64,000 nucleotides of DNA from Maribacter orientalis (GTDB lineage Bacteria > Bacteroidota > Bacteroidia > Flavobacteriales > Flavobacteriaceae): contig NZ_FNZN01000005.1 of NCBI RefSeq assembly GCF_900109345.1, positions 186,001-250,000 on the forward strand, in the 5' to 3' direction. Each line of letters opens with the position of its first letter. Position 1 is the first letter of the stretch. Shown here piece after piece: positions 20,610-33,357 of this stretch. The translations under genes and the position numbers were made by a program. The notes beneath the pieces are model-generated. The model was given only the letters and a program-made list of their open reading frames with translations, searched no databases and had not been told where the DNA came from.

Positions 20610-21821
20610 ATGAAAATTATAAAATATTCATTTTTAATAAGTTGCATTTTATTGTTGGTTAATTGTATCGACCCTTTTGAAATTGAAGCAACTGAATTTA
20701 AAAGCGCTTTAGTCATTGAAGGGACCATTACAGATCAAGAAGAAATTCAGCGTATTATGGTGTCACGTACATTTCCTTTAGATACTGTTTTAATGACAGG
20801 TTTAAGTGCTGTGAATGTTAATGTATTGGATAGTAACGGAGGTGTTTATGCCTTTAGCGAAACTTCACCTGGCGATTACCGTTCCAATACTCCATTTGCA
20901 GCTACAGCAGGCCTGACTTATACTTTAAAAGTAGCGACCTCTGACGGAAATAGCTATACATCGGAAGAAACAGCGGTGCCTGCAAAGACAAACATCGATA
21001 ACTTGTATGCGGATAGAGATTTTAAGGATGATGGTGCAGAAGAAGGTATGTTTATTTACGTTGATAGTTATGATGCTACAGGGCAATCTAAGTATTATCG
21101 GTATGAATATGAGGAGACTTATAAAATAATAGCACCAAACTGGAGTGCTTCTGATGCTTATATCGTTTCTCCATTACCCAATCCTGAAGTTGCAATAAGA
21201 GCGAAAACTAAAGAGGAGCGAGTGGCCTATAATACCGTTGCTTCAAATACTATTATTCAAGAGAATACAACGGAATTAGGAGAAGACCGTGTAAATAAAT
21301 TTCCTGTTCGATTTATCAATAGAGAAAATTTTATTTTATCACATAGGTACAGTATTCTAGTAAGACAGTTTGTTCAGAGTAGGGCTGCATTTTCTTATTA
21401 TGAAACTTTAGAATTACTCTCAGGTACAGAAAGCCTTTTCTCTCAGCGTCAATCTGGTTTTTTAGAAGGTAATATAAAGTCTGATACGAATGCAGAAGAC
21501 GATGTAGTTGGTTTTTTTCAAGTAAGTACTGTTTCTGAAAAACGTTTGTTTTTTAATTACACTGATTTTTTTGAAGGCGAAAGTTTACCGAAATATCCAG
21601 TCGATTGTACTTTGGTTTCCCCTCCAATTATAAATGAAGCTGGTGCTTCTCCATTACTTGTGGCTATAGAGTTAGAAACGCTTAAATACGTAGAGGAATA
21701 TAATCAAGAAACTAATCCAAACAATCTTAGTGAATTCGGACCTTTTTTAATGGTGGCTACACCTTGTGGTAATAGTACGTTTTATGGTACCAATGTAGTT
21801 CCAGATTTTTGGGTGGAATAA
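20610..21821 (+). CDS. DUF4249 lipoprotein, copy 1
   Basis: This 403-residue protein has a lipoprotein signal peptide ending LLLVNC, with Cys19 lipidated. The mature N-terminus IDPFEIEATEFKSALVIEG is the hallmark of DUF4249, an Ig-like-containing Bacteroidota family found after TonB receptor genes. It starts 19 bp after the receptor stop. It is closely similar to the next gene along its whole length, with long identical stretches such as NKFPVRFINRENFILSHRYS, so a tandem duplication produced the pair. A surface ligand-binding role similar to SusD is an inference. Confidence 0.85.
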   Translation: MKIIKYSFLISCILLLVNCIDPFEIEATEFKSALVIEGTITDQEEIQRIMVSRTFPLDTVLMTGLSAVNVNVLDSNGGVYAFSETSPGDYRSNTPFAATAGLTYTLKVATSDGNSYTSEETAVPAKTNIDNLYADRDFKDDGAEEGMFIYVDSYDATGQSKYYRYEYEETYKIIAPNWSASDAYIVSPLPNPEVAIRAKTKEERVAYNTVASNTIIQENTTELGEDRVNKFPVRFINRENFILSHRYSILVRQFVQSRAAFSYYETLELLSGTESLFSQRQSGFLEGNIKSDTNAEDDVVGFFQVSTVSEKRLFFNYTDFFEGESLPKYPVDCTLVSPPIINEAGASPLLVAIELETLKYVEEYNQETNPNNLSEFGPFLMVATPCGNSTFYGTNVVPDFWVE

Positions 21822-21876
21822 GTGATTAACTAATTAAATAGTACGTAATAATTAAGAAATATTTAAATTTTTAAAA

Positions 21877-23097
21877 GTGCAGTATTTAAAATCATCGATT
21901 CATATACTCTTTGCAATAAGCATAGGCATTTTGCTGCATAGTTGTATTGACCCGTTTGAAATTGAAACAATTGATTTTAATAGTACTTTGGTCGTAGAGG
22001 GAACAATTACGGACAAAAACGAGACTCAACGTATTATGGTTTCAAAAACTTTTCCGTTAGATACCGTTCTAATGTCTGGATTAAGCGATGCTAAGGTTGA
22101 GGTGAAAGATAGTAATGGTAGTATTTATGAATTTACAGAGACATCTACCGGTATATATACGTCTAAGGTGCCTTTTGCTGCTGCTGCCGGTCTTAGCTAT
22201 TCATTGACAATACAGTCGAATGATGGAAAAACATATATTTCTGAAGATACATCGATGCCAGCAACTAGCACCATTGATAATTTATACGCGGCAAGAGATT
22301 TTAAGGATGATGGGGCTGAGGAAGGTATGTTTATTTATATCGATAGTTATAATTCTACAGGTCAATCAAAATATTATCGATATGAATATGATGAAACATT
22401 TAAGATTATAGCACCATTTTGGAGCTCTGCCGATGCCTATGTAGTTACACCGCTACCTGAACCAGAAGTAGATATAAGGGCAAGAACTGAAGAGGAGCGT
22501 GTTTGTTATAAAACAGTTTCTTCAAATACAATCATTCAGGAGAATACAACGGAATTCAGTGAGGATCGCGTTAATAAATTTCCAGTACGTTTTATCAATA
22601 GAGAAAATTTCATTCTATCACATCGATATAGTATTTTGGTAAGACAATTTGTGCAGAATAGGGCTGCATACGCCTATTATGAAACCCTAGAAACGCTATC
22701 TGGCTCAGAAAGTCTTTTTTCTCAAATTCAAGCCGGTTTCCTAGAAGGAAATATTAAGTCACAAACAGATGAGGAAAACGTTATTGGTTTTTTTCAAGTA
22801 AGTACAGTTTCAGAGAAGCGTATATTTTTTAACTATACTGATTTTTTTCCTGGTGAAAATTTGCCAGATTATGTAAGTGATTGTCCATTGCTGGCCCCGC
22901 CGATTATAACCGAAGGTGGTACCTCTCCATTAATAGATGGTATCGAACAGAATCTTCTTAAATATTATAGTGAGTATTCTCCGATGGGTGATTTATTAAC
23001 GACAGGGTCACCTGGGCCTTATTATATGGTATACTCAGTTTGTGGTGATTGTACGGTTTTGGGAGATAATACGGTGCCTGATTTTTGGATTGAATAA
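21877..23097 (+). CDS. DUF4249 lipoprotein, copy 2
   Basis: This is the paralogue of the preceding gene (406 residues). It starts at GTG 21877, giving a signal peptide ending LLHSC with the lipidated Cys23 followed by IDPFEIETIDFNSTL. The central region is nearly identical to copy 1, while the C-terminal 60 residues differ most. This copy has an extra segment with several cysteines (VYSVCGDCTVLG), which suggests diversification at the ligand-facing end. It belongs to the TonB receptor transcription unit, 55 bp after copy 1 and 21 bp before the next gene. Confidence 0.85.
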   Translation: MQYLKSSIHILFAISIGILLHSCIDPFEIETIDFNSTLVVEGTITDKNETQRIMVSKTFPLDTVLMSGLSDAKVEVKDSNGSIYEFTETSTGIYTSKVPFAAAAGLSYSLTIQSNDGKTYISEDTSMPATSTIDNLYAARDFKDDGAEEGMFIYIDSYNSTGQSKYYRYEYDETFKIIAPFWSSADAYVVTPLPEPEVDIRARTEEERVCYKTVSSNTIIQENTTEFSEDRVNKFPVRFINRENFILSHRYSILVRQFVQNRAAYAYYETLETLSGSESLFSQIQAGFLEGNIKSQTDEENVIGFFQVSTVSEKRIFFNYTDFFPGENLPDYVSDCPLLAPPIITEGGTSPLIDGIEQNLLKYYSEYSPMGDLLTTGSPGPYYMVYSVCGDCTVLGDNTVPDFWIE

Positions 23098-24930: not shown

Positions 24931-26466
24931 ATGCTTACAAAAGTTTATGGAAGTGCAGTTTTTGGCGTAGAGGCTACGACAATAGTTGTTGAGGTTAATA
25001 TCGACAAGGGTATTGGATATCATTTAGTAGGCCTGCCCGATAATGCAATTAAAGAAAGTAATTACCGAATTGCTGCCGCACTACAAAACAACGGTTATAA
25101 AATTCCCGGTAAAAAAATTACTATTAATTTGGCTCCTGCAGATCTTCGTAAAGAAGGATCGGCCTATGACCTTACCTTGGCTGTAGGTATTCTTGCAGCT
25201 TCTAATCAGATTAAGTCTGAGAATATTGAGAAGTACATTATAATGGGAGAACTTTCCTTAGATGGTGGGCTACAGCCAATTAAAGGCGCATTGCCTATTG
25301 CAATTAAAGCTCAAGAGGAAGGTTTTACAGGTTTTATGCTACCTACGGCAAATGCAAAAGAGGCCGCTATTGTTGGTGATTTGAAAGTGTACGGAATTGA
25401 TAATATTAAGCAAGTCTTAGATTTCTTTGATAAGGGTACACCTTTAGAACAAACTATTATAGATACACGTGAAGAGTTTTATAAAAATCTTGATTTTCCT
25501 GAGTTTGATTTTTCAGATGTAAAGGGGCAAGAAAGTATTAAACGATGTATGGAGATTGCCGCTGCAGGTGGACATAATGTTATATTGATTGGTCCGCCTG
25601 GTGCTGGTAAAACCATGTTAGCAAAAAGATTACCCTCTATTTTGCCACCCATGACATTACATGAAGCATTGGAAACTACCAAAATTCATAGTGTGGTCGG
25701 TAAAATTAAGAACATGGGTTTAATGAGTCAACGGCCCTTTCGAAGTCCACATCATACAATTTCAGACGTAGCTTTAGTGGGTGGTGGTTCGTACCCACAA
25801 CCGGGGGAAATTTCTCTTTCACATAATGGCGTTTTATTTTTAGATGAATTGCCTGAATTTAAACGTGGCGTTTTAGAAGTGCTTAGACAACCTTTAGAAG
25901 ATAGGGAAGTAACGATATCGCGAGCACGATTTACGGTGACCTACCCCAGTAGTTTTATGCTAGTGGCTAGTATGAATCCGAGTCCGGGTGGGTATTTTAA
26001 TGATCCTGATGCCCCAGTAACATCCTCGCCGGCAGAAATGCAGCGTTATCTAAGTAAAATATCGGGTCCGTTATTGGATCGTATCGATATTCATATCGAG
26101 GTTACACCAGTACCTTTCGAGAAACTATCTGAAGAGCGAAAAGGAGAAGGGAGTGTTGAAATCAGAAAAAGAGTTACTTCGGCAAGAGAATTACAAACTT
26201 TACGTTTTGCCGAATTAGAGAATGTGCATTATAATGCCCAGATGAATACCAAGCAAATTCGTTTGTATTGCAAATTAGATGAAAAATCGAAGTCCCTTTT
26301 AAAAAATGCGATGGAACGATTAAATCTTTCTGCACGGGCCTATGATAGAATTCTCAAAGTTGCTAGAACCATTGCAGACCTTAGTGGTGATTCAGACTTG
26401 AACGGTGATCATATATCAGAAGCCATCCAGTACAGAAGCCTAGATAGAGAGGGGTGGTTGGGGTAG
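24931..26466 (+). CDS. comM: YifB/ComM family Mg-chelatase-like AAA+ ATPase
   Basis: This 511-residue protein has an N-terminal Lon-protease-like domain (YGSAVFGVEATTIVVEVNID), the AAA+ core with Walker A GPPGAGKTMLAKR and Walker B LFLDELPEF, and a C-terminal Mg-chelatase domain. In transformable bacteria ComM is a helicase that extends branch migration during integration of incoming DNA. The last 15 codons (EAIQYRSLDREGWLG) recur, diverged, three times in the next 6 kb, so the 3' end of this gene appears to have acted as an insertion target. The gene itself is intact. Confidence 0.93.
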   Translation: MLTKVYGSAVFGVEATTIVVEVNIDKGIGYHLVGLPDNAIKESNYRIAAALQNNGYKIPGKKITINLAPADLRKEGSAYDLTLAVGILAASNQIKSENIEKYIIMGELSLDGGLQPIKGALPIAIKAQEEGFTGFMLPTANAKEAAIVGDLKVYGIDNIKQVLDFFDKGTPLEQTIIDTREEFYKNLDFPEFDFSDVKGQESIKRCMEIAAAGGHNVILIGPPGAGKTMLAKRLPSILPPMTLHEALETTKIHSVVGKIKNMGLMSQRPFRSPHHTISDVALVGGGSYPQPGEISLSHNGVLFLDELPEFKRGVLEVLRQPLEDREVTISRARFTVTYPSSFMLVASMNPSPGGYFNDPDAPVTSSPAEMQRYLSKISGPLLDRIDIHIEVTPVPFEKLSEERKGEGSVEIRKRVTSARELQTLRFAELENVHYNAQMNTKQIRLYCKLDEKSKSLLKNAMERLNLSARAYDRILKVARTIADLSGDSDLNGDHISEAIQYRSLDREGWLG

Positions 26467-26552
26467 GTTTTTGGTTATCAATTTGACCTCTAGTTTAAAG
26501 CTGTTGTCAGCCAAGTGTATTTGCTGAATTTATTTTCAGATACTAGTTTTAA

Positions 26553-26770
26553 CGAATTTTTCTAAAGAATATGATCATATGAAATAGTGGTTGGTGGTTT
26601 CCTTTTTAAGGTACAGAACTATTTAACTCATGATTTTTAATATATAAATTAATGAATTTGTTTTCATAGTTAGGATTCCCATGATGTTACCCTAGTCAAG
26701 AAAATCGTAGATTTCAGACTTTCACATTCGGGAGTATAACGAAGCAATCCAATTAATTAAGGAGTTTGCT
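26553..26770 (+). repeat. comM-tail repeat unit 1 (most degenerate)
   Basis: It begins with TTTTTCTAAAGAATATGATC and TAGTGGTTGGTGGTTTCC, shared with unit 2 at 30291. It ends with TTCACATTCGGGAGTATAAC and then GAAGCAATCCAAT followed by AAGGAGTTTGC, a decayed version of the comM 3' coding end. The coding frame is broken. The other two units lie at 30291-30480 and 32049-32234. Confidence 0.6.
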
Positions 26771-26812
26771 TACAGCTGTGGTTAGGGTACATGTATTTAT
26801 TGCTTTTTGGTT

Positions 26813-26844
26813 CCCCCGCTAGCGCTCGTTTGCAACGAGTGCCC
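26813..26844. repeat. REP-like palindrome, copy 1
   Basis: CTCGTT and AACGAG form a stem around TGC within CCCGCTAGCGCTCG onward, with a nested TAGCGCTC. The same 24-base core recurs at about 27650-27674. Short GC-rich palindromes of this type in AT-rich intergenic DNA resemble REP elements mobilised by REP-associated tyrosine transposases; no such transposase is in the window. Confidence 0.6.
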
Positions 26845-27078
26845 ACAGGAGTAAGCTATATCTAACTAAGGTAAAACCTATGTGGAGTACTTCACCGCCC
26901 CCACACTCGCGCAGGCAAAATTCCATAAAAATAAAGCTAGTGCGAGCAGCTTGTGCTGAACTTGTTTCAGTATGACGCTCGTACCGTCAAGTATGAGGGT
27001 TTAGTTTGGTAGGCGGTTGCCAGCTACAAGCTATAGGGACTGGAGCTGTGCATGTTTGTACAGTTGGTAATTACATAT

Positions 27079-27507
27079 TTAAACCCTGTAAACATCTACC
27101 CTCCAATTTTTTATGAGCATTTTAATTTCTTTGTTGGTTAAGTTTTCTTTTAAAGCTTTTTCTACTAAGGGTAAAAACTCCTCATCACTCGCAAAACGTA
27201 GCGCTATAATTTGGGCTACTTTTAGTTCTTTAGGGAATAATTTGCCTGTCATTACATAATACCTCAAATTTTCTTCAGCTTTTATAGCCCTGTCTTGTGC
27301 TTTTAAAGGAAAGCTGCGTACAAACCATGCCATAATTAAAAATATAATAGCGATTAGCACTACTAAAGAAGCTAAATACAGGTTATCACTACTGGTACGA
27401 ATAAGATTACTTATAGCACCGATTAATAAAGCTAGTATCGCAATAAACAAGAGTCCATGAAACCCTTTTACAAGTTTACCATGATTTTTAAAATTCTGTT
27501 CTTCCAT
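27079..27507 (-). CDS. DUF6526 family membrane protein
   Basis: This 142-residue protein has a short polar N-terminus (MEEQNFKNHGKLVKGFHGLL), two transmembrane helices at about 18-38 and 44-63, and a cytosolic C-terminal domain with an E-x3-Y-x4-G-KLFP pattern. The layout matches the flavobacterial DUF6526 family, whose function is not known. It sits alone in the accessory stretch after comM, separated from the upstream PIG-L gene by a hairpin terminator at 27563-27590 and REP-like repeats. Confidence 0.75.
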   Translation of the reverse strand: MEEQNFKNHGKLVKGFHGLLFIAILALLIGAISNLIRTSSDNLYLASLVVLIAIIFLIMAWFVRSFPLKAQDRAIKAEENLRYYVMTGKLFPKELKVAQIIALRFASDEEFLPLVEKALKENLTNKEIKMLIKNWRVDVYRV

Positions 27508-27562
27508 TTTTTTAGTTTGATTTAAAGATAATCTTATTAATTAGTACTTTTCGAATATAAAG

Positions 27563-27590
27563 AAAGCCACTCAATCTATCGAGTGGCTTT
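27563..27590. terminator. Hairpin terminator between PIG-L and DUF6526 genes
   Basis: AAAGCCACTC pairs perfectly with GAGTGGCTTT around an 8-nt loop. On the minus strand it is followed by CTTTATATT, a weak U-tract. It would end transcription from the PIG-L gene before the DUF6526 gene. Confidence 0.6.
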
Positions 27591-27644
27591 GTTATTATAA
27601 TTCTTTATCCGTTTTATTAAAATTTTACTAATCAGTCGTTTTTT

Positions 27645-27760
27645 CCCCGGCTAGCGCTCGTTTGCAACGAGTACCCCCGCTATCGCGAGCGTCATGCTCG
27701 TGCCTTCAAGTATGAGTATAGTTCCTTCTACTCGCGCTCGTTTACAGCAAGAATTCGAGT
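27645..27760. repeat. REP-like palindrome, copy 2 and degenerate copy 3
   Basis: The core GGCTAGCGCTCGTTTGCAAC and GAGTACCCCC repeats the copy at 26813. It is followed by CGCGAGCGTCATGCTCGTG and CTTCAAGTATGAG; the last part also occurs near 26975-26999. A third, decayed piece (CTCGCGCTCGTTTACAGCAA) lies at 27731-27750. These make up most of the 380-base gap between 27508 and 27887, which otherwise holds only the terminator and no gene. Confidence 0.6.
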
Positions 27761-27887
27761 TAAAACCACTCTGAACAAATTGCAACCATACCGAATAAAA
27801 AGACGGCTTTTAAATACTTTTTCAAGTAGAACACTTATCGGAAAAATGGGTAGCTTGGTTCCTACTTGCAAACAGATTGTAGCTGGT

Positions 27888-28748
27888 TTAATCACGCGGT
27901 GCATGACCCATGGAATCTGGTGCTCCTTGGTGGTATCTAAATCTTTCCACTGATTTTCCATCGATTACTTTAATGCGCTTCCTGATGTTATTAAATAATT
28001 TTTCCTTTTCTGTAGCAGGATATTTATCAATATCATGTCCTAGATAATTATTCCATCCTGATGTCCATTGACTCACATATTTGGAGCCTGCGTTGACACG
28101 TTGTTCTACAAAATCGGTAATGTCTACTATGGTGTTTTTGTCGGACACATTGCCTCCATAAAAAAGGAATTCAGGAATAACATGGGCCTCTAATTTGTCT
28201 TGTATGATATGTCCTTCATACATCAAAGGCCATTCTGCTGCCCTCACCGCATCAGCAGCTAAATAGGCTGCCGCCCGATGATCACTTTTGTGCCAAACCT
28301 GATAATTATATCCAGGATCAAAAGCCATCAATACATCGGGTTTTAGCTTTCTTATATAATAGACCAATTTACCAATAGCTTCTTCTTTATTCGCAAATTC
28401 AAGTCTACCATCATCATAGCCCAGATTAATATACCGGTCTTCAGATAAACCAATCTGCTTCATGGCATCAAGTTGTTCAATACGTCTGATCTTGGCAAGA
28501 TCATCTTTTCCCAGTTTCGGATCCTTTGTTCCCACATTTCCGGTGCTCATGGTTAGGATATATATCTCATTGCCATTTTTGTTGAGCATAGCCAATGTGC
28601 CATGTGATTGATGGTCATCGTCAGGATGAGCCCCGATTAAAAGCACTCTCTTCCCTTTCCAGTTTTCAACTGTTTCCTTGGGTTGTGCAAACCCAATTAG
28701 TGAGGTAAAAATCAAATAGCCAAAAATTAAGAATCTAGTAGTTTTCAT
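27888..28748 (-). CDS. Exported PIG-L/LmbE family deacetylase
   Basis: This 286-residue protein has a signal peptide (1-21, ending GFAQ). The zinc-binding motif AHPDDDHQSHG (40-50) is diagnostic of the PIG-L family of N-acetylglucosamine-type deacetylases; the downstream histidine ligand is probably in WHKSDHRAA. Its partners suggest nothing specific, as it lies isolated in the accessory stretch. The C-terminus overlaps REP-flanked sequence but remains open. The substrate, presumably a GlcNAc-containing glycan or small molecule in the periplasm, is unknown. Confidence 0.88.
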   Translation of the reverse strand: MKTTRFLIFGYLIFTSLIGFAQPKETVENWKGKRVLLIGAHPDDDHQSHGTLAMLNKNGNEIYILTMSTGNVGTKDPKLGKDDLAKIRRIEQLDAMKQIGLSEDRYINLGYDDGRLEFANKEEAIGKLVYYIRKLKPDVLMAFDPGYNYQVWHKSDHRAAAYLAADAVRAAEWPLMYEGHIIQDKLEAHVIPEFLFYGGNVSDKNTIVDITDFVEQRVNAGSKYVSQWTSGWNNYLGHDIDKYPATEKEKLFNNIRKRIKVIDGKSVERFRYHQGAPDSMGHAPRD

Positions 28749-29097
28749 CAGTATACAATTTATGCTTTATATAAATATAAGTATTTTACGCATTTCAATT
28801 CTTCCGGATAAAAGTGATCATCAATTCATTTTCGTTTTTGGTGGAAATTGATTCGCTATCCGATATAGGTTTTTTCTTCTTGGGTCATTTTTAAATAATT
28901 ACGCCATCAATACCAGATGCTTCCATAAGTAGCTCAAAAACTATAATTTAGGAGAACACCAAAATAGATAAAGCTACCGAAGTAGTAGTGGTTAGATTTG
29001 TTAACCGATTGTGGAGTAGGAGATTGGCAGCTATAATACGTGATAAGTCCCTATATAGTTCACATGTACATTATAAATATGTTAATGAGTTCTAGCC
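28749..29097. other. Intergenic stretch with no recognised gene
   Basis: All frames are broken by stops. A short piece at about 28983-29000 (GTAGTAGTGGTTAGATTTG) resembles the start of the comM-tail repeat units, and GGAGATTGGCAGCTATAA at about 29020 weakly resembles sequence near 27010. I see nothing else. Confidence 0.4.
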
Positions 29098-29856
29098 TTA
29101 CTCTATATTTTGCCTTATCTGTTTAATTAATAGGTTAGTTTGCTCTTCTAACGGTAAATAGAAATTTGTATTTAGGTTTGTTGACATTACAATGAATAAG
29201 TATAGATTGGTTTCAAATTCTGGATTTTCAAGAAAAATAAAATCATTGTTTGGAAATTTACTTGGATCAACATCAATAAGAACGTCCTCAATAATATCCA
29301 AATGTCTTCTAAAATTTCCATTGTTTAAAAAAAATTGATGGGTGTAATTCTGTATTTTGATAACACTGTTTTCTTGATTTTTTACAAGTTCCAATTGTGA
29401 TTGTATTTCAGAAATTGCCTTTCTCAAGGATGGATCAGAAATGATGGATAATTTTCCAGAATTATTTATTTCATCATAGGTTCCTTTGTTGGGCACATAC
29501 CTAGATACCTACTTGAAAGCATCCACCATATTTTGGGACATTTCTTTCTCGCTTATAATTGGTAATGAAGGACCAGTGAATTTTCCAATTTCTAAAGAAC
29601 CTTCAATAATTGCAGTATTGGTTTCAATAGTCTTAGTGAGTATCGTGAGATTGGTTTCAAACTCTTGTAAAAGCGAAATCAACAATTGCTGTTCGATAGC
29701 CTTATTTTTTTGTTCTTCATTCCAATTATTTATCTGCAATGCAATCAAAATACCAATAACTACCAGTACTATTTCCCCAAAGGCATACAGTAGATATTTG
29801 TAGAATTTGTTTTCGGTAAGCAGACGTTGTCTTATACGACGGAAAAATTTAATCAT
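29098..29856 (-). pseudogene. DUF6090 family membrane protein with one amber codon
   Basis: From ATG 29856 the frame begins with FFRRIRQRLLTENKFYKYLL, one transmembrane helix (EIVLVVIGILIALQINNWNE) and a coiled, acidic periplasmic part, the layout of DUF6090. A single TAG at 29509-29511 after MVDAFK interrupts it. The same frame continues VSRYVPNKGTYDEINNSGKL to a normal stop at 29098, giving the expected length of about 250 residues. One substitution would restore it. A second, far more decayed DUF6090 relic lies at 30619-30699. Function of the family is unknown. Confidence 0.8.
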
Positions 29857-30055
29857 GGGAAGTGGTTAGTTATTCTTCCTAAGAAACTGAATAAAAATAA
29901 ATGACTTAAAATCAGTCAAATAATATTTAAAATGAAGAATACCACATTATATAGAGTTACAGATGAAGTAAAGGTTGATTATAGTGATTGTTAGAGGTCA
30001 CGGATCTTTAACTGAAAATTGTCATACATTACCGAGAAATTAATAAATAGTCGTT

Positions 30056-30271
30056 ATGGGATTTATCGCTGGCTTGATTGCATTGTTTTTGGGTTCAATA
30101 GTTGGTATAACTATAACGGTTATTTATTCATTAAAAAAAAATAGTAAAGGGAAAGAATTGTCTACTACCAAAATGGTTCTTTCTTCGCTTGGAGTATTTT
30201 TTATTTCAACTCTGATTGCCATTCCATCCATATTTTATCTTCTGTTTCTTATGTATAGTCGGGCAGCATAA
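30056..30271 (+). CDS. Small two-helix membrane protein, hypothetical
   Basis: A 71-residue frame from ATG 30056 has two hydrophobic helices (about 4-25 and 42-65) separated by a basic polar loop (LKKNSKGKELSTTK). The loop positive charge and helix spacing look like a real small membrane protein rather than random sequence. I recognise no family. It lies alone between the DUF6090 pseudogene and the second comM-tail repeat, so it is cargo of the accessory stretch if genuine. Confidence 0.5.
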   Translation: MGFIAGLIALFLGSIVGITITVIYSLKKNSKGKELSTTKMVLSSLGVFFISTLIAIPSIFYLLFLMYSRAA

Positions 30272-30290
30272 TTTAGTCAGTAGGTTGTAA

Positions 30291-30480
30291 CGTATTTTCT
30301 AAAGAACTTTATCATAAAAGTAATAGGTTGGTGGTTTCCCTATCAAGGTACGGAAATATTCAGTTCCTAATTTTTTGTATAATGCATTTGTCAGCTGCGA
30401 GATATTTTAAAGGTTACACCTTCGGGTGTATAGCCGAAGCGATGCAATATAGGAGTTTAGATATAGAAGGGTGGTTGGGG
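30291..30480 (+). repeat. comM-tail repeat unit 2
   Basis: TTTTCTAAAGAACTTTATCA and GGTTGGTGGTTTCCC match unit 1. The unit ends with TTACACCTTCGGGTGTATAG and then 15 codons at 30436-30480 reading EAMQYRSLDIEGWLG, against EAIQYRSLDREGWLG in comM. Most nucleotide differences from comM are in third codon positions. There is no complete gene: the frame runs into unrelated sequence on both sides. Confidence 0.75.
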
Positions 30481-30618
30481 AAGATTTATGAGGAGGCCAA
30501 CAAAATTCTATCCATGACATTTACTGAATTTACTTTCGGTCAAAAGTCTTTGTCCTATATTTTGTAAGAATTTAACCTTTTGAAGAATTTTTTTCAAACT
30601 TTTTTTTGACTACCATCT

Positions 30619-30699
30619 TCATTTCAATTATTGATTGGTAATGCAAATACGATTTCTCCAAAAGCATATTTTTATTACTTGCCTGTCCTATTTTTTAGA
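30619..30699 (-). pseudogene. Relic of a second DUF6090 gene
   Basis: Minus-strand translation gives LKNRTGK, two stops, KYAFGEIVFALPINN, a stop, then NE. This matches the DUF6090 signature ENRTGKYxKYAFGEIVLVV followed by ALQINNWNE, with Tyr and Trp codons turned into stops and about eight codons of the transmembrane helix deleted. The remainder of the gene is not recognisable. It lies just downstream of comM-tail unit 2. Confidence 0.65.
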
Positions 30700-31173
30700 T
30701 AGCATTTGCTGATGTATTGTCTGGATAAATTTAATCGTTTAAAGTAATGATCCAAAGTCGTCTAAACAAGTTAGTAAATCATTAATAACATTATAAGTAA
30801 TTGGTATACAGTGTTTTAATTAATTTATATTAAGATAGAGGCTATGTTAATAAAGTAGAGTTTAACCCCTGTTTTTAGCGCTTATAATAGTGAATATCAA
30901 GGACAATTTGATTTTTTATTACATGCCCTCAATGTTACTGGTTTTCAATCGCTCAGTAGAAAAACCATAGAGGTAAGAAATAGACGTTTCACGCAAGTTA
31001 AACCCATTTAGTATTAAATTTATAGTGATTTGTGGTAGGGTTTTTTCTGTACTAATTGTTTTAGAATATATAAGAATTAATCTTAAATCATATTTATAGT
31101 TAAAACCCCTATGAAACAAAAATTTAATTACCCCCAAATGAAAAATGAATTTAACCTATTAAACAATTTAAAA
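30700..31173. other. Gene-poor stretch upstream of the acidic lipoprotein
   Basis: A minus-strand frame of 72 codons (30919-31137) is open, but it runs into the upstream region of the lipoprotein gene and I recognise no family in it, so it is not called as a gene. The rest is AT-rich with stops in all frames and should contain the lipoprotein promoter, although no clear TAnnTTTG box is seen. Confidence 0.35.
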
Positions 31174-31926
31174 ATGAAAACCATTCAAAAAATGGCACTA
31201 GTTGCTTTAAGTGTTTTTACTGTTGTGTCTTGCAGCAAAAATAATGAGGATACTCTAAATGATTTACCCGTGGGTATCGCCTTAAAGGCAGATGCAAAAG
31301 TTAGAGTTGGTGATTTGCCTGTGGAAATTTTAGATTTTGTGGCAAGTGAATATCCTGATTTAACCATAGATGAGGCAGAAGAAGAAGATAATGGTAATTT
31401 TGAGGTAAAATTAAGTGATGGTACAGAACTTATTTTTGATGCCAATGGCATCTTTTTAGGCATTGATGATGACAGCCAAGAAAATGGTGATTTCGATGAC
31501 TCTGAAGTTGCTAAAGAAGACTTATTGCAAGTTATTTTGGACTATATCGAGCTAAATTATCCTGGAGTGGGGATAGATGAAGCAGAACTAGAACATAATG
31601 ATCAATACGAAGTGGAATTGAATGACGATACTATTTTGATTTTTAATATCACTGGTGATTTCCAGGGTGTTGGTGTCGATGAAAACGACCAAGATGATGA
31701 TGGAGATTATGACTGGGAAGAAGAAGATGGGAACGATGATGGAGACACTATAGACCCCGCCCAATTACCAGAGATGGCACTGTCGTATTTGAATGAGACC
31801 TACCCAAATCTTACCATTGTACATGCGGAAATTGAAGATGAAGGCGATTTTGAAGTAACCATGAGCAATGGGTTGGAAGTTTATTTTGATGCCGAAGGAA
31901 ATTTCCTTTCTGTGGATGAAGATTAA
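31174..31926 (+). CDS. Acidic lipoprotein with three PepSY-like repeats
   Basis: I start at ATG 31174, which gives a proper lipoprotein signal (MKTIQKMALVALSVFTVVSC, lipidated Cys20); an upstream ATG at 31111 would bury it. The mature part holds three repeats of about 60 residues, each of the form LPxxxLxYxxxxYPxLTIxxAExExxGxFEV-L-DGTELIFDAxGxFLxxDxD. They start near residues 49, 122 and 199 and resemble the PepSY-like/BLIP-like (DUF2874) fold. Linkers are very acidic (NDQDDDGDYDWEEEDG), suggesting calcium or other cation binding. A strong terminator follows. Confidence 0.8.
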   Translation: MKTIQKMALVALSVFTVVSCSKNNEDTLNDLPVGIALKADAKVRVGDLPVEILDFVASEYPDLTIDEAEEEDNGNFEVKLSDGTELIFDANGIFLGIDDDSQENGDFDDSEVAKEDLLQVILDYIELNYPGVGIDEAELEHNDQYEVELNDDTILIFNITGDFQGVGVDENDQDDDGDYDWEEEDGNDDGDTIDPAQLPEMALSYLNETYPNLTIVHAEIEDEGDFEVTMSNGLEVYFDAEGNFLSVDED

Positions 31927-31977
31927 GATAATTTATATTGTTAAAGAAGGGCTATAGTCCCAAACCACAATAAAATC

Positions 31978-32022
31978 ACCCTGTTGCCTAACTGTTTTTT
32001 AGAGTTAGGGAACAGGGTTTTT
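31978..32022 (+). terminator. Strong terminator after the acidic lipoprotein gene
   Basis: ACCCTGTTGCCTAACT pairs with AGTTAGGGAACAGGGT around a T-rich loop and is followed by TTTTT. It lies about 50 bp after the lipoprotein stop. Confidence 0.85.
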
Positions 32023-32048
32023 AATTTGTATTTTGAAGAGTTATAGAA

Positions 32049-32234
32049 GAAGTAGTGGTTGGTTTAACAATTTACTGAATTATTTAGTCTATAATAATCA
32101 TGCAATAACATACCTAGTTTGATTTTATACAAGGTATTTGCAGTAGCTCTGATTTTGTATTCCAAAGTTACACATTCGGGTGTTTACCTGAAGCTATACA
32201 ATACAGAAGTTTCGATAGAGAAGGTTGGTTGGGG
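32049..32234 (+). repeat. comM-tail repeat unit 3
   Basis: It starts AAGTAGTGGTTGGTTTAAC like units 1 and 2. It ends TTACACATTCGGGTGTTTAC and then 32190-32234 encoding EAIQYRSFDREGWLG, followed by Leu and a stop (TTATAA). This is the best-preserved tail outside comM itself; it differs from comM mostly at third codon positions. The unit abuts the end of the convergent aminotransferase gene at 32242 and forms most of the 315-base gap after the lipoprotein gene. Confidence 0.75.
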
Positions 32235-32241
32235 TTATAAA

Positions 32242-33357
32242 CTATCCCATCACTTTTCTGAGAGCTTTATCAAAAAGCTTTATTTCTTCTGTTGTACCAG
32301 TACTAATTCTTGCCCAATCATTAAATGGTGGAAAAGGTCTTCCTATTAGAACATTTTCTTTTTCCATGGCAGACATCATTTCATTTATCGGTATTCCGGT
32401 TTTGAAAAAAACAAAGTTTGTATGTGATTTTTGGTATTCTAAGTTCAAATCATTTAAGGTCTTGTAGATATCATTTTTTGCTTCCACATTTTTAGCAACG
32501 CTAAATTTGTAAAACGCATCATCTCTTAATGCTTCTTTAGCAGCTTCAATCGCTAAAACATTTGACATAGCCATAATGTTTTTTTTCAGTCTGGTCGCAA
32601 TGTCTGGTCGAGCGACTAAGTATCCTATTCGAAGCCCTGCAAGGCCATAAACTTTTGAAAATGTTTTTGAGACTATTACATTCATATTTTCCTTCACCAA
32701 TTCAATCATTGAAGGGTAATCGGGTTCGGTAATAAAATCGTAATAAGCTTCGTCACTAAAAACCATGGTTCTATTGCTAACGGAGGAGCAGAAATCTCTC
32801 AGTTTATTTCTGTCAAGTAATGTGCCTGTAGGATTGTTTGGGTTGCATATGAAAATCAAACCTGTTTTAGAGGTTATTCGTTTCTCCATTTCATCTAAAT
32901 TATGCCCCATGTTATTATCTACGGGAACTCGATGTACGGTAGCGCCAAAATTCTCGGCATAGGTCATGAGGGACTGAAAAGTAGGGTCAGCAGCAATAAT
33001 TTCACCGCCGTTAATTCCGTAGGTCAGACCAGCAGCCTTTAAACCTTCTGTAGAACCGCCAGTAATAACAATGTGATCTTTGGTTACACCTTCTTTCTGT
33101 GCTATTTGTTCTACTAATGGATGTAGCACCATTGAGGGGTATCTACAAGCAATATCCAATGAATTTTTAATTACCTCTCGTACTGCTTTTGATGGCCCAT
33201 ACGGATTTTCATTAGAATTTAATTTGGCAATTCTTGATTTTTCTAAATAATCAGATTTTTCGGTTGGTATGGCGAAAGCTCCAAATCCACCTAAAAAAGT
33301 AAAACCACTAGAAAGTCCAGCAGTTTTAAGCCATTGTCGTCTGTCAATAGTGTTCAT
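32242..33357 (-). CDS. Tat-signal aminotransferase, HisC-like
   Basis: This 371-residue class I/II PLP aminotransferase resembles histidinol-phosphate aminotransferase: CNPNNPTG (171-178), SDEAYYDF (201-208), the likely PLP Lys235 in SKTFSKVYGLAGLRIGY, and an Arg in ARISTG near the end. It begins with a twin-arginine signal (DRRQWLKTAGLSSGFTFLGG), so it should be folded with cofactor and exported to the periplasm, unlike cytosolic HisC. There are no other his genes nearby. The substrate is unknown; a role in periplasmic amino-acid or cell-wall metabolism is possible but unproven. Confidence 0.85.
   Translation of the reverse strand: MNTIDRRQWLKTAGLSSGFTFLGGFGAFAIPTEKSDYLEKSRIAKLNSNENPYGPSKAVREVIKNSLDIACRYPSMVLHPLVEQIAQKEGVTKDHIVITGGSTEGLKAAGLTYGINGGEIIAADPTFQSLMTYAENFGATVHRVPVDNNMGHNLDEMEKRITSKTGLIFICNPNNPTGTLLDRNKLRDFCSSVSNRTMVFSDEAYYDFITEPDYPSMIELVKENMNVIVSKTFSKVYGLAGLRIGYLVARPDIATRLKKNIMAMSNVLAIEAAKEALRDDAFYKFSVAKNVEAKNDIYKTLNDLNLEYQKSHTNFVFFKTGIPINEMMSAMEKENVLIGRPFPPFNDWARISTGTTEEIKLFDKALRKVMG

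What the first reader, a model, noticed from the sequence alone, without database searches (positions are those of the whole stretch)
26419..32234. Tandem comM-tail repeats suggest a decayed insertion array at the 3' end of comM
Three diverged copies of a unit of about 190-220 bp lie downstream of comM (26553-26770, 30291-30480, 32049-32234). Each ends in a version of the comM 3' coding end. In unit 2 (30436-30480) and unit 3 (32190-32234) the 15 codons read EAMQYRSLDIEGWLG and EAIQYRSFDREGWLG, against EAIQYRSLDREGWLG in comM. Differences fall mainly in third codon positions, which means the tails came from functional comM genes of diverged relatives and did not drift after a local duplication. 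Units share an upstream TTACACATTCGGGTGTATA-like block absent from comM. Between them lie variable cargo genes: DUF6526, PIG-L and DUF6090 before unit 2; a DUF6090 relic and an acidic lipoprotein before unit 3. The order cargo then conserved tail recalls site-specific integration at a gene 3' end, or a cassette-like array. No integrase is in the window.
Basis: partly seen in the sequence, partly recalled or inferred. Interest (0 to 1): 0.72.

Follow-up and report, generated by a model that had tools for sequence, protein, structure and literature searches.

The report
Stacked integration scars behind comM
Behind an intact DNA-uptake gene (comM) this bacterium carries left-over copies of that gene's own end, scars of mobile DNA that repeatedly landed in the gene, so the stretch is a small fossil record of islands hitting comM.

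Summary
Two comM-tail units (30404-30485, 32158-32238) are far beyond chance; the third (26711-26789) is real but decayed. Upstream of each tail lie the 5' end of a minus-strand DUF6090 gene and a 19-bp arm. Relatives show displacement: G018's comM end plus flank aligns unbroken with unit 2 plus its flank; G026's comM end plus aminotransferase aligns unbroken with unit 3 plus aminotransferase. Both tails are former comM ends pushed away by insertions. comM is a hotspot in the family: 32 of 322 genomes with a core match carry two or more comM cores within 15 kb. Junctions cluster at fixed points. At codon 281, large serine recombinase (LSR) islands sit in comM today in at least 11 genomes; six others keep that attR scar behind a full-length comM, and G410 keeps attL too. 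The window holds an LSR-type right end (29934-29966), 77 nt from DUF6090 as in relatives. Best reading: a stack of attR scars of comM-targeting islands, comM being kept or regained. The enzyme for the window's codon-495 junction was not found. comM as an island target is known; the stacked scars behind intact comM and the DUF6090 right end look new.

The parts
24931..26466 (+). comM (YifB/Mg-chelatase-like), intact, 511 aa; the integration target
   Evidence: ORF; Pfam Mg_chelatase, ChlI, Mg_chelatase_C
26413..26463 (+). current comM 3' core (last 17 codons)
26517..26565 (-). relic of the first codons of a DUF6090 gene, close behind comM
   Evidence: 26517-26623 matches DUF6090 start regions of G032, G029, G005; limits by eye
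26553..26789 (+). unit 1: DUF6090 leader, arm, strongly decayed comM core
   Evidence: 31.5 bits, E 9e-9; alignment
27079..27507 (-). cargo: DUF6526
   Evidence: Pfam PF20136; 88-90% DNA identity to the comM interval of G002, G009, G016, whose comM is 76-77% identical
27888..28748 (-). cargo: PIG-L family protein
   Evidence: Pfam PF02585; 88.6% to the same interval of G022, comM 77.7%
29098..29862 (-). DUF6090 gene, interrupted (one in-frame TAG)
29934..29966 (+). LSR-type attR half-site (P' arm), 77 nt from the DUF6090 start; no comM fragment follows
   Evidence: 23.2 bits, next best in window 13.4, highest of 100 single-strand mononucleotide shuffles 17.8; similar spacing in G032, G337, G005
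30056..30271 (+). 71-aa ORF between the half-site and unit 2, no Pfam match
30291..30482 (+). unit 2: DUF6090 start relic, leader, arm (30414-30432), comM core (30430-30480)
30436..30751 (+). old comM 3' end plus its old downstream flank; unbroken match to comM end and flank in G018
   Evidence: 68.9% over 354 columns
31111..31926 (+). cargo: acidic lipoprotein, PepSY_like repeats
   Evidence: Pfam PF11396; lies downstream of comM in G018 too, 87-88% DNA
32039..32236 (+). unit 3: DUF6090 leader, arm (32168-32186), comM core (32184-32234); the oldest comM end
   Evidence: core plus aminotransferase matches comM end plus aminotransferase of G026, 80.7% over 109 nt
32242..33357 (-). aminotransferase class I/II, neighbour of comM in G026
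   Evidence: Pfam PF00155; last codons of the two genes 10 nt apart in G026

Best explanation
The units are right-end (attR) scars of integrative islands that inserted in comM. Each scar is: a right-terminal DUF6090 gene on the minus strand (here mostly relics), its leader, a half-site arm, then the comM 3' fragment that the insertion displaced. SHOWN: the u2 and u3 cores sit where relatives have their comM 3' ends, in the order u3 oldest, then u2, then the present comM; comM is a recurrent target with fixed junctions; at codon 281 the agents are LSR islands, and scars of that class remain behind full-length comM genes. INFERRED: the window's junction (codon 495, arm TTACACATTCGGGTGTATA) was made by a related site-specific recombinase; island bodies and recombinases were later lost; a whole comM was kept either because the element brought its own 3' end or because a split gene was regained by recombination with incoming comM DNA. 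G410 shows the outcome of the second route for the LSR class.
For: Displacement: G018 for unit 2, G026 for unit 3; in G022 the window's comM end plus flank (26302-26626) matches a displaced comM tail plus flank, 72%, with PIG-L next in both, so the window is the earlier state for G022's insertion. Same arm-core junction in 10 tails of several genera (collected by similarity; named: Maribacter, Muriicola, Eudoraea). In 397 family genomes the full arm plus core occurs in 6, at the comM locus in 5; in G072 contigs break. Hotspot: 32 of 322 genomes with a core match have two or more cores on one strand within 15 kb. Paired control: second tandem comM C-terminus in 11 of 132 genomes, ilvD C-terminus in 0 of 110, Fisher p 0.001. 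LSR class: comM cut at codon ~281 with an LSR behind it in G031 and G033 and in 9 of 15 genomes holding a related LSR, G337 among them. Same half-site with full-length comM upstream in G032, G163, G223, G410, G411 and, as a variant by eye, G272; G410 keeps attL too. Window LSR half-site 77 nt from DUF6090, as in G032 (77), G337 (74, 80, 82), G005 (81). G005, closest by comM, has a codon-281 scar (half-site 18.4 bits) with about 20 comM codons in this interval. Shared cargo is more alike than comM in 16 of 18 species pairs.
Against: No recombinase, attL or intact island was found for the codon-495 class, and its arm is not the LSR half-site. Only 6 of 397 genomes carry it, so one old insertion, inherited and reshuffled, could explain part. 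G005 shares the cargo but has no codon-495 tail in the two contig pieces read. DUF6090 is common away from comM (10 copies here); in 32 rows of gene starts checked (27 distinct genes, one of them at comM of G032) 0 carry the codon-495 arm, and LSR half-sites were not found at the DUF6090 loci away from comM. Left out of the model, G031's half-site scores -3.7 and G033's 17.5 bits. The two exceptions are DUF6090 of G005 (85% against comM 90%) and a SnoaL-like gene of G017. Which copy is the imported one is undecided.
Confidence: 0.72

Rival explanations
1. Gene-restoring cassettes (overlaps with one route of the best explanation): a recombinase acting in trans inserts small elements carrying their own comM 3' end, so comM is never broken; tandem accretion gives comM-cargo-core-cargo-core, as in composite SCC islands.
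For: The comM 3' end is whole in the codon-495 carriers where it could be read (window, G029, G265, G067, G137, G337), though G337's comM is split at codon 281; homology of the tails ends near the stop codon (by eye); tandem order; no site-specific recombinase seen in codon-495 cargo (by eye; few of these genes were put to Pfam).
Against: No trans-acting recombinase identified; the LSR class in the same family visibly cuts comM and leaves the same kind of scar.
Confidence: 0.3
2. One-sided (homology-facilitated illegitimate) recombination of incoming comM DNA with cargo, without any site-specific enzyme, leaves comM tails at random joints.
For: Some tails have scattered 5' ends (G048, G156, G178, G429); the 38-kb insert of G229 shows no recombinase by eye; the joint between the comM flank and old comM nt 786 in G410 looks illegitimate.
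Against: Junctions pile up at codon 281, at exactly 36 codons from the end (four tails by BLAST; two more by eye) and at codon 495 with a shared arm.
Confidence: 0.15
3. Local tandem duplication of the comM end followed by drift.
For: Tandem position at one locus.
Against: Units no closer to each other than to other genera; third-position excess; flanks of u2 and u3 match comM flanks of relatives.
Confidence: 0.03
4. One ancient codon-495 insertion inherited in the clade, later multiplied by recombination among DUF6090 copies and cores.
For: Arm restricted to a few related genera; DUF6090 is repetitive; tail and comM share exact runs up to 28 nt in G265 and 24 in G067.
Against: Two nested displacements with separate earlier states in the window's genus; in the window the exact runs are only 12 and 9 nt, short for RecA.
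Confidence: 0.2

Closest known systems
Large serine recombinase islands in Mg-chelatase/comM homologues (PMC10083194, passages read)
   Same: Same target gene family; [quoted passage not shown]
   Different: Here mostly scars behind a full-length comM; the window's own junction is at codon 495 with a different arm and no LSR seen
AbaR and other elements in comM of Acinetobacter (PMC7253598, PMC11472951; passages read)
   Same: Mobile elements hit comM; the second paper raises regain of comM by recombination
   Different: AbaR is Tn7-like (PMC11472951) and disrupts comM; stacked displaced 3' ends are not described in the passages read
Composite SCC islands at orfX (PMC3026799, passages read)
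   Same: Tandem elements behind one gene, delimited by direct repeats, the first at orfX
   Different: Repeats here are about 50 bp of coding sequence with an arm; no ccr genes; different phylum. That SCC repeats are the gene end is recalled
Integron gene cassette arrays (recalled)
   Same: Assorted cargo genes each followed by a repeated site
   Different: No integrase seen; attC features not tested; the site is a gene end

Membership tests
LSR island integrated in comM | LSR gene next to the attachment site | tested here: not met
   Not among the 8 window ORFs scanned; met in G031 and G033
LSR island integrated in comM | attR half-site at the right end | tested here: met
   29934-29966, 23.2 bits, 77 nt from DUF6090; the comM fragment behind it is missing
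LSR island integrated in comM | junction at comM codon ~281 | tested here: not met
   u2 and u3 join comM sequence at codon ~495
Island insertion at a gene 3' end | earlier state in relatives, displaced gene end in place | tested here: met
   G018 and G026
SCC elements | ccr recombinase genes | tested here: not met
   No recombinase Pfam in the 8 window ORFs scanned
SCC elements | tandem elements separated by gene-end repeats | tested here: met
Integron cassette array | integron integrase and attC sites | tested here: inconclusive
   No integrase in the window ORFs scanned; attC features not tested
Site-specific recombination by a codon-495 enzyme | crossover shown by excision or circular form | not testable with these tools
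   Needs live strains

The most novel reading that the evidence does not exclude
comM in this family is the site of a long-running contest: islands of several site specificities (codon 281, 293, about 476, about 495) keep inactivating the transformation helicase gene, and hosts keep regaining it, each round leaving an attR scar whose right-end gene is DUF6090. The scar stack would be a countable record of disruption and repair cycles, and DUF6090 an island-end function of unknown role.
Probability: 0.35. Interest if true: 0.8.

Novelty: new variant of a known kind. Interest (0 to 1): 0.62.

Why it matters
Why mobile elements target competence genes, and whether hosts recover them, is debated. 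[quoted passage not shown] Stacked scars behind full-length comM genes, with attL and attR still readable in one genome, would make that question countable across genomes, and they point to new attachment specificities and a candidate island-end gene family (DUF6090).

Tried and rejected
Genome-wide mobile repeat: unit 3 DNA found no other strong copy in the own genome (a weak test, since unit 2 was not listed either). Phage attachment site: the comM core pattern found 0 viral contigs (exact matches only). tRNA target: no tRNA in the window. Structured, attC-like unit: weak, 1 of 15 predicted pairs with a two-sided change. Shared arm for the junction 36 codons from the end: not clear over six tails (94 of 2000 shuffles reach the observed value); only G340 and G383 are clearly alike. 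Conversion tract at the window's comM end against G005: inconclusive. Which copy is native in G032: both equally close to relatives. Intact codon-495 element in G072: its comM contig ends at codon 434. Defence cargo: R-M proteins in G031 and G033, nothing for the three window proteins or four G017 proteins tried. DUF6090 literature: 0 papers held. Searches returned mostly noise because comM matches ordinary words.

Cargo check: besides the window, 20 proteins of relatives were put to Pfam: 3 recombinases of G031 and G033, and 17 cargo genes, of which 9 match a family (one, in G137, below the curated cut-off), two of them IS200-like Y1 transposases (G335, G337). Other cargo was judged by eye only; in G272 a resolvase-like fragment follows comM (by eye).
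Full report
OBSERVATION. comM (24931-26466) is intact. The repeats reported at its end exist. The last 51 nt of comM match 30430 and 32184 at 40 of 51 positions; the next best site in the window has 28 and the best of 100 dinucleotide shuffles 30. A sequence model of ten tails gives 80.9 and 80.3 bits for units 2 and 3, 45.5 for the comM end and 31.5 for unit 1. Units 2 and 3 were in the model; unit 1 and the comM end were not. Unit 1 is real but decayed.

WHAT THE UPSTREAM PART IS. Before each tail come the 5' end or leader of a DUF6090 gene on the minus strand and the arm TTACACATTCGGGTGTATA. Just behind comM, about 26517-26565, is a DUF6090 start relic. In a comparison of 13 leader-arm-core units, u2 is 62-63% identical to u1 and u3 but 75% to G337's unit, and u1 and u3 are likewise no closer to each other (56%) than to other genera; the tree is poorly resolved, with one inner branch well supported. 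So they are not recent local copies.

DISPLACED GENE ENDS. In G018 the last 15 codons of comM and about 290 bp behind them align in one piece with window 30436-30751 (68.9%), and the lipoprotein gene follows in both. G018 thus shows the state before everything between comM and unit 2. In G026 the last codons of comM and the aminotransferase lie 10 nt apart, and that junction aligns in one piece with unit 3's core plus the aminotransferase, 32190-32298 (80.7%). In G022 the comparison runs the other way: the window's comM end and flank, 26302-26626, match a displaced comM tail and its flank (72%), followed by PIG-L in both, so G022 has gained one more insertion. Unit 3 is the oldest comM end in the window, unit 2 younger, the present comM end newest. 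Eight tails differ from their own comM [8,7,40] by codon position: 40 of 55 at third positions, more than the roughly 47% I estimate for a neutral copy beside a conserved gene (p 1e-4; the tails are not fully independent).

A HOTSPOT IN THE FAMILY. Of 397 genomes of the family, 322 have a core match; 34 have two or more, and in 32 of these two lie on one strand within 15 kb (left out: G196, on two contigs, and G261, far apart on two strands). The model holds tails of five of these 397 genomes (G000, G265, G072, G137, G067). With equal-length protein queries in 149 genomes, a second comM C-terminus lies in tandem within 15 kb in 11 of 132 genomes with a match, and a second ilvD C-terminus in 0 of 110; four genomes have distant ilvD second matches (Fisher p 0.001). 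Cargo is assorted. In the genus the comM-aminotransferase interval varies widely; several genomes have no cargo behind comM, and some of these also lack the aminotransferase there. Shared cargo is more alike than comM in 16 of 18 pairs.

FIXED JUNCTIONS AND THEIR ENZYME. Tail starts cluster: codon ~281; exactly 36 codons from the end in four tails by BLAST and two by eye; codon ~495 with the arm; others are scattered. At codon 281 G031 and G033 have comM split around 12 and 16 kb with a large serine recombinase directly behind the 5' half (Resolvase, Recombinase and zinc-ribbon domains). Among 397 genomes 15 hold a related LSR by a search that scored three candidates per genome; 9 of the 15 have comM up to codon ~281 directly before it. 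G337 is one; its island carries DUF6090-like genes near its right end and is followed by the comM 3' half, ten DUF6090-like genes, a codon-495 tail and a tail starting 36 codons from the end. G053 is split at codon 293 before a protein that looks like an LSR (by eye). The half-site before GATGT recurs in scars behind a full-length comM in G032, G163, G223, G410 and G411, with a variant in G272. G410 has both attL and attR behind its full-length comM, so the split copy was left behind when a whole comM stood upstream again.

THE WINDOW'S OWN LSR TRACE. A model of that half-site, from eight copies, finds 29934-29966 as the best place in the window: 23.2 bits, next 13.4, highest of 100 single-strand mononucleotide shuffles 17.8. 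Left out in turn, six of the eight copies score 27 to 43 bits, G033 17.5 and G031 -3.7. The window site lies 77 nt from the DUF6090 start, as in G032 (77), G337 (74, 80, 82) and G005 (81). No comM fragment follows it in the window. In G005, closest by comM, the same interval holds a codon-281 scar (18.4 bits) with about 20 comM codons and more cargo, but no codon-495 tail in the pieces read.

MECHANISM. Shown: insertion at comM, displacement, order, LSR agency at codon 281, scars behind full-length comM. Inferred: units 1-3 come from islands of the same general build but another specificity. Two routes keep comM whole: an element that brings its own comM end, or regain of comM by recombination with incoming DNA. 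G410 documents an outcome of the second for the LSR class; for codon 495 I cannot choose.

KNOWN AND NEW. comM/Mg-chelatase genes are a leading LSR target (PMC10083194) and are hit by mobile elements in several bacteria (PMC4774983, PMC7253598, PMC11472951); passages were read in each. SCC composite islands (PMC3026799, passages) resemble it in layout. I saw no description of stacked comM ends behind an intact comM in those passages or in the listings, which is not proof of absence.

Noticed in passing
L203, L206, L196, L204 and other DUF6090 loci: Many DUF6090 genes away from comM are preceded by a repeat-like sequence (AATGAAGCACAACGG...GTTGGCAATT) that to the eye resembles an attC or REP-type element.
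   Followed up: no
L192-L193 and L164 (G229, C2:397000-441500): A 38-kb cluster of sulfatase and glycan-utilisation-like genes (by eye) lies between comM and a displaced comM fragment starting at codon 274, with no recombinase seen by eye.
   Followed up: partly
L161, L188, L120 (G335, G337, G282): An IS200-like Y1 transposase gene sits directly behind comM or a comM fragment (Pfam-tested in G335 and G337, by eye in G282).
   Followed up: partly
window 26404-26578 against G032 (L052): The flank directly behind comM, DUF6090 relic included, is shared with G032 (76% over 177 nt), so unit 1's left end is older than this species.
   Followed up: no
window 26811-26844 and 27643-27676: A 34-bp direct repeat, 94% identical, flanks the DUF6526 gene; a stretch beside it (27674-27710) matches the G017 interval four times.
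   Followed up: no
G015, G065, G176, G133: Four genomes at least 95% complete gave no comM match at E 1e-10, suggesting loss of comM.
   Followed up: no
window 20610-23097: Two neighbouring ORFs of 403 and 406 aa are alike by eye and look like a tandem duplication.
   Followed up: no
L131 and L188: Arrays of five and ten DUF6090-like genes with LSR half-sites beside several of them; some half-sites are followed only by short comM-like letters.
   Followed up: partly
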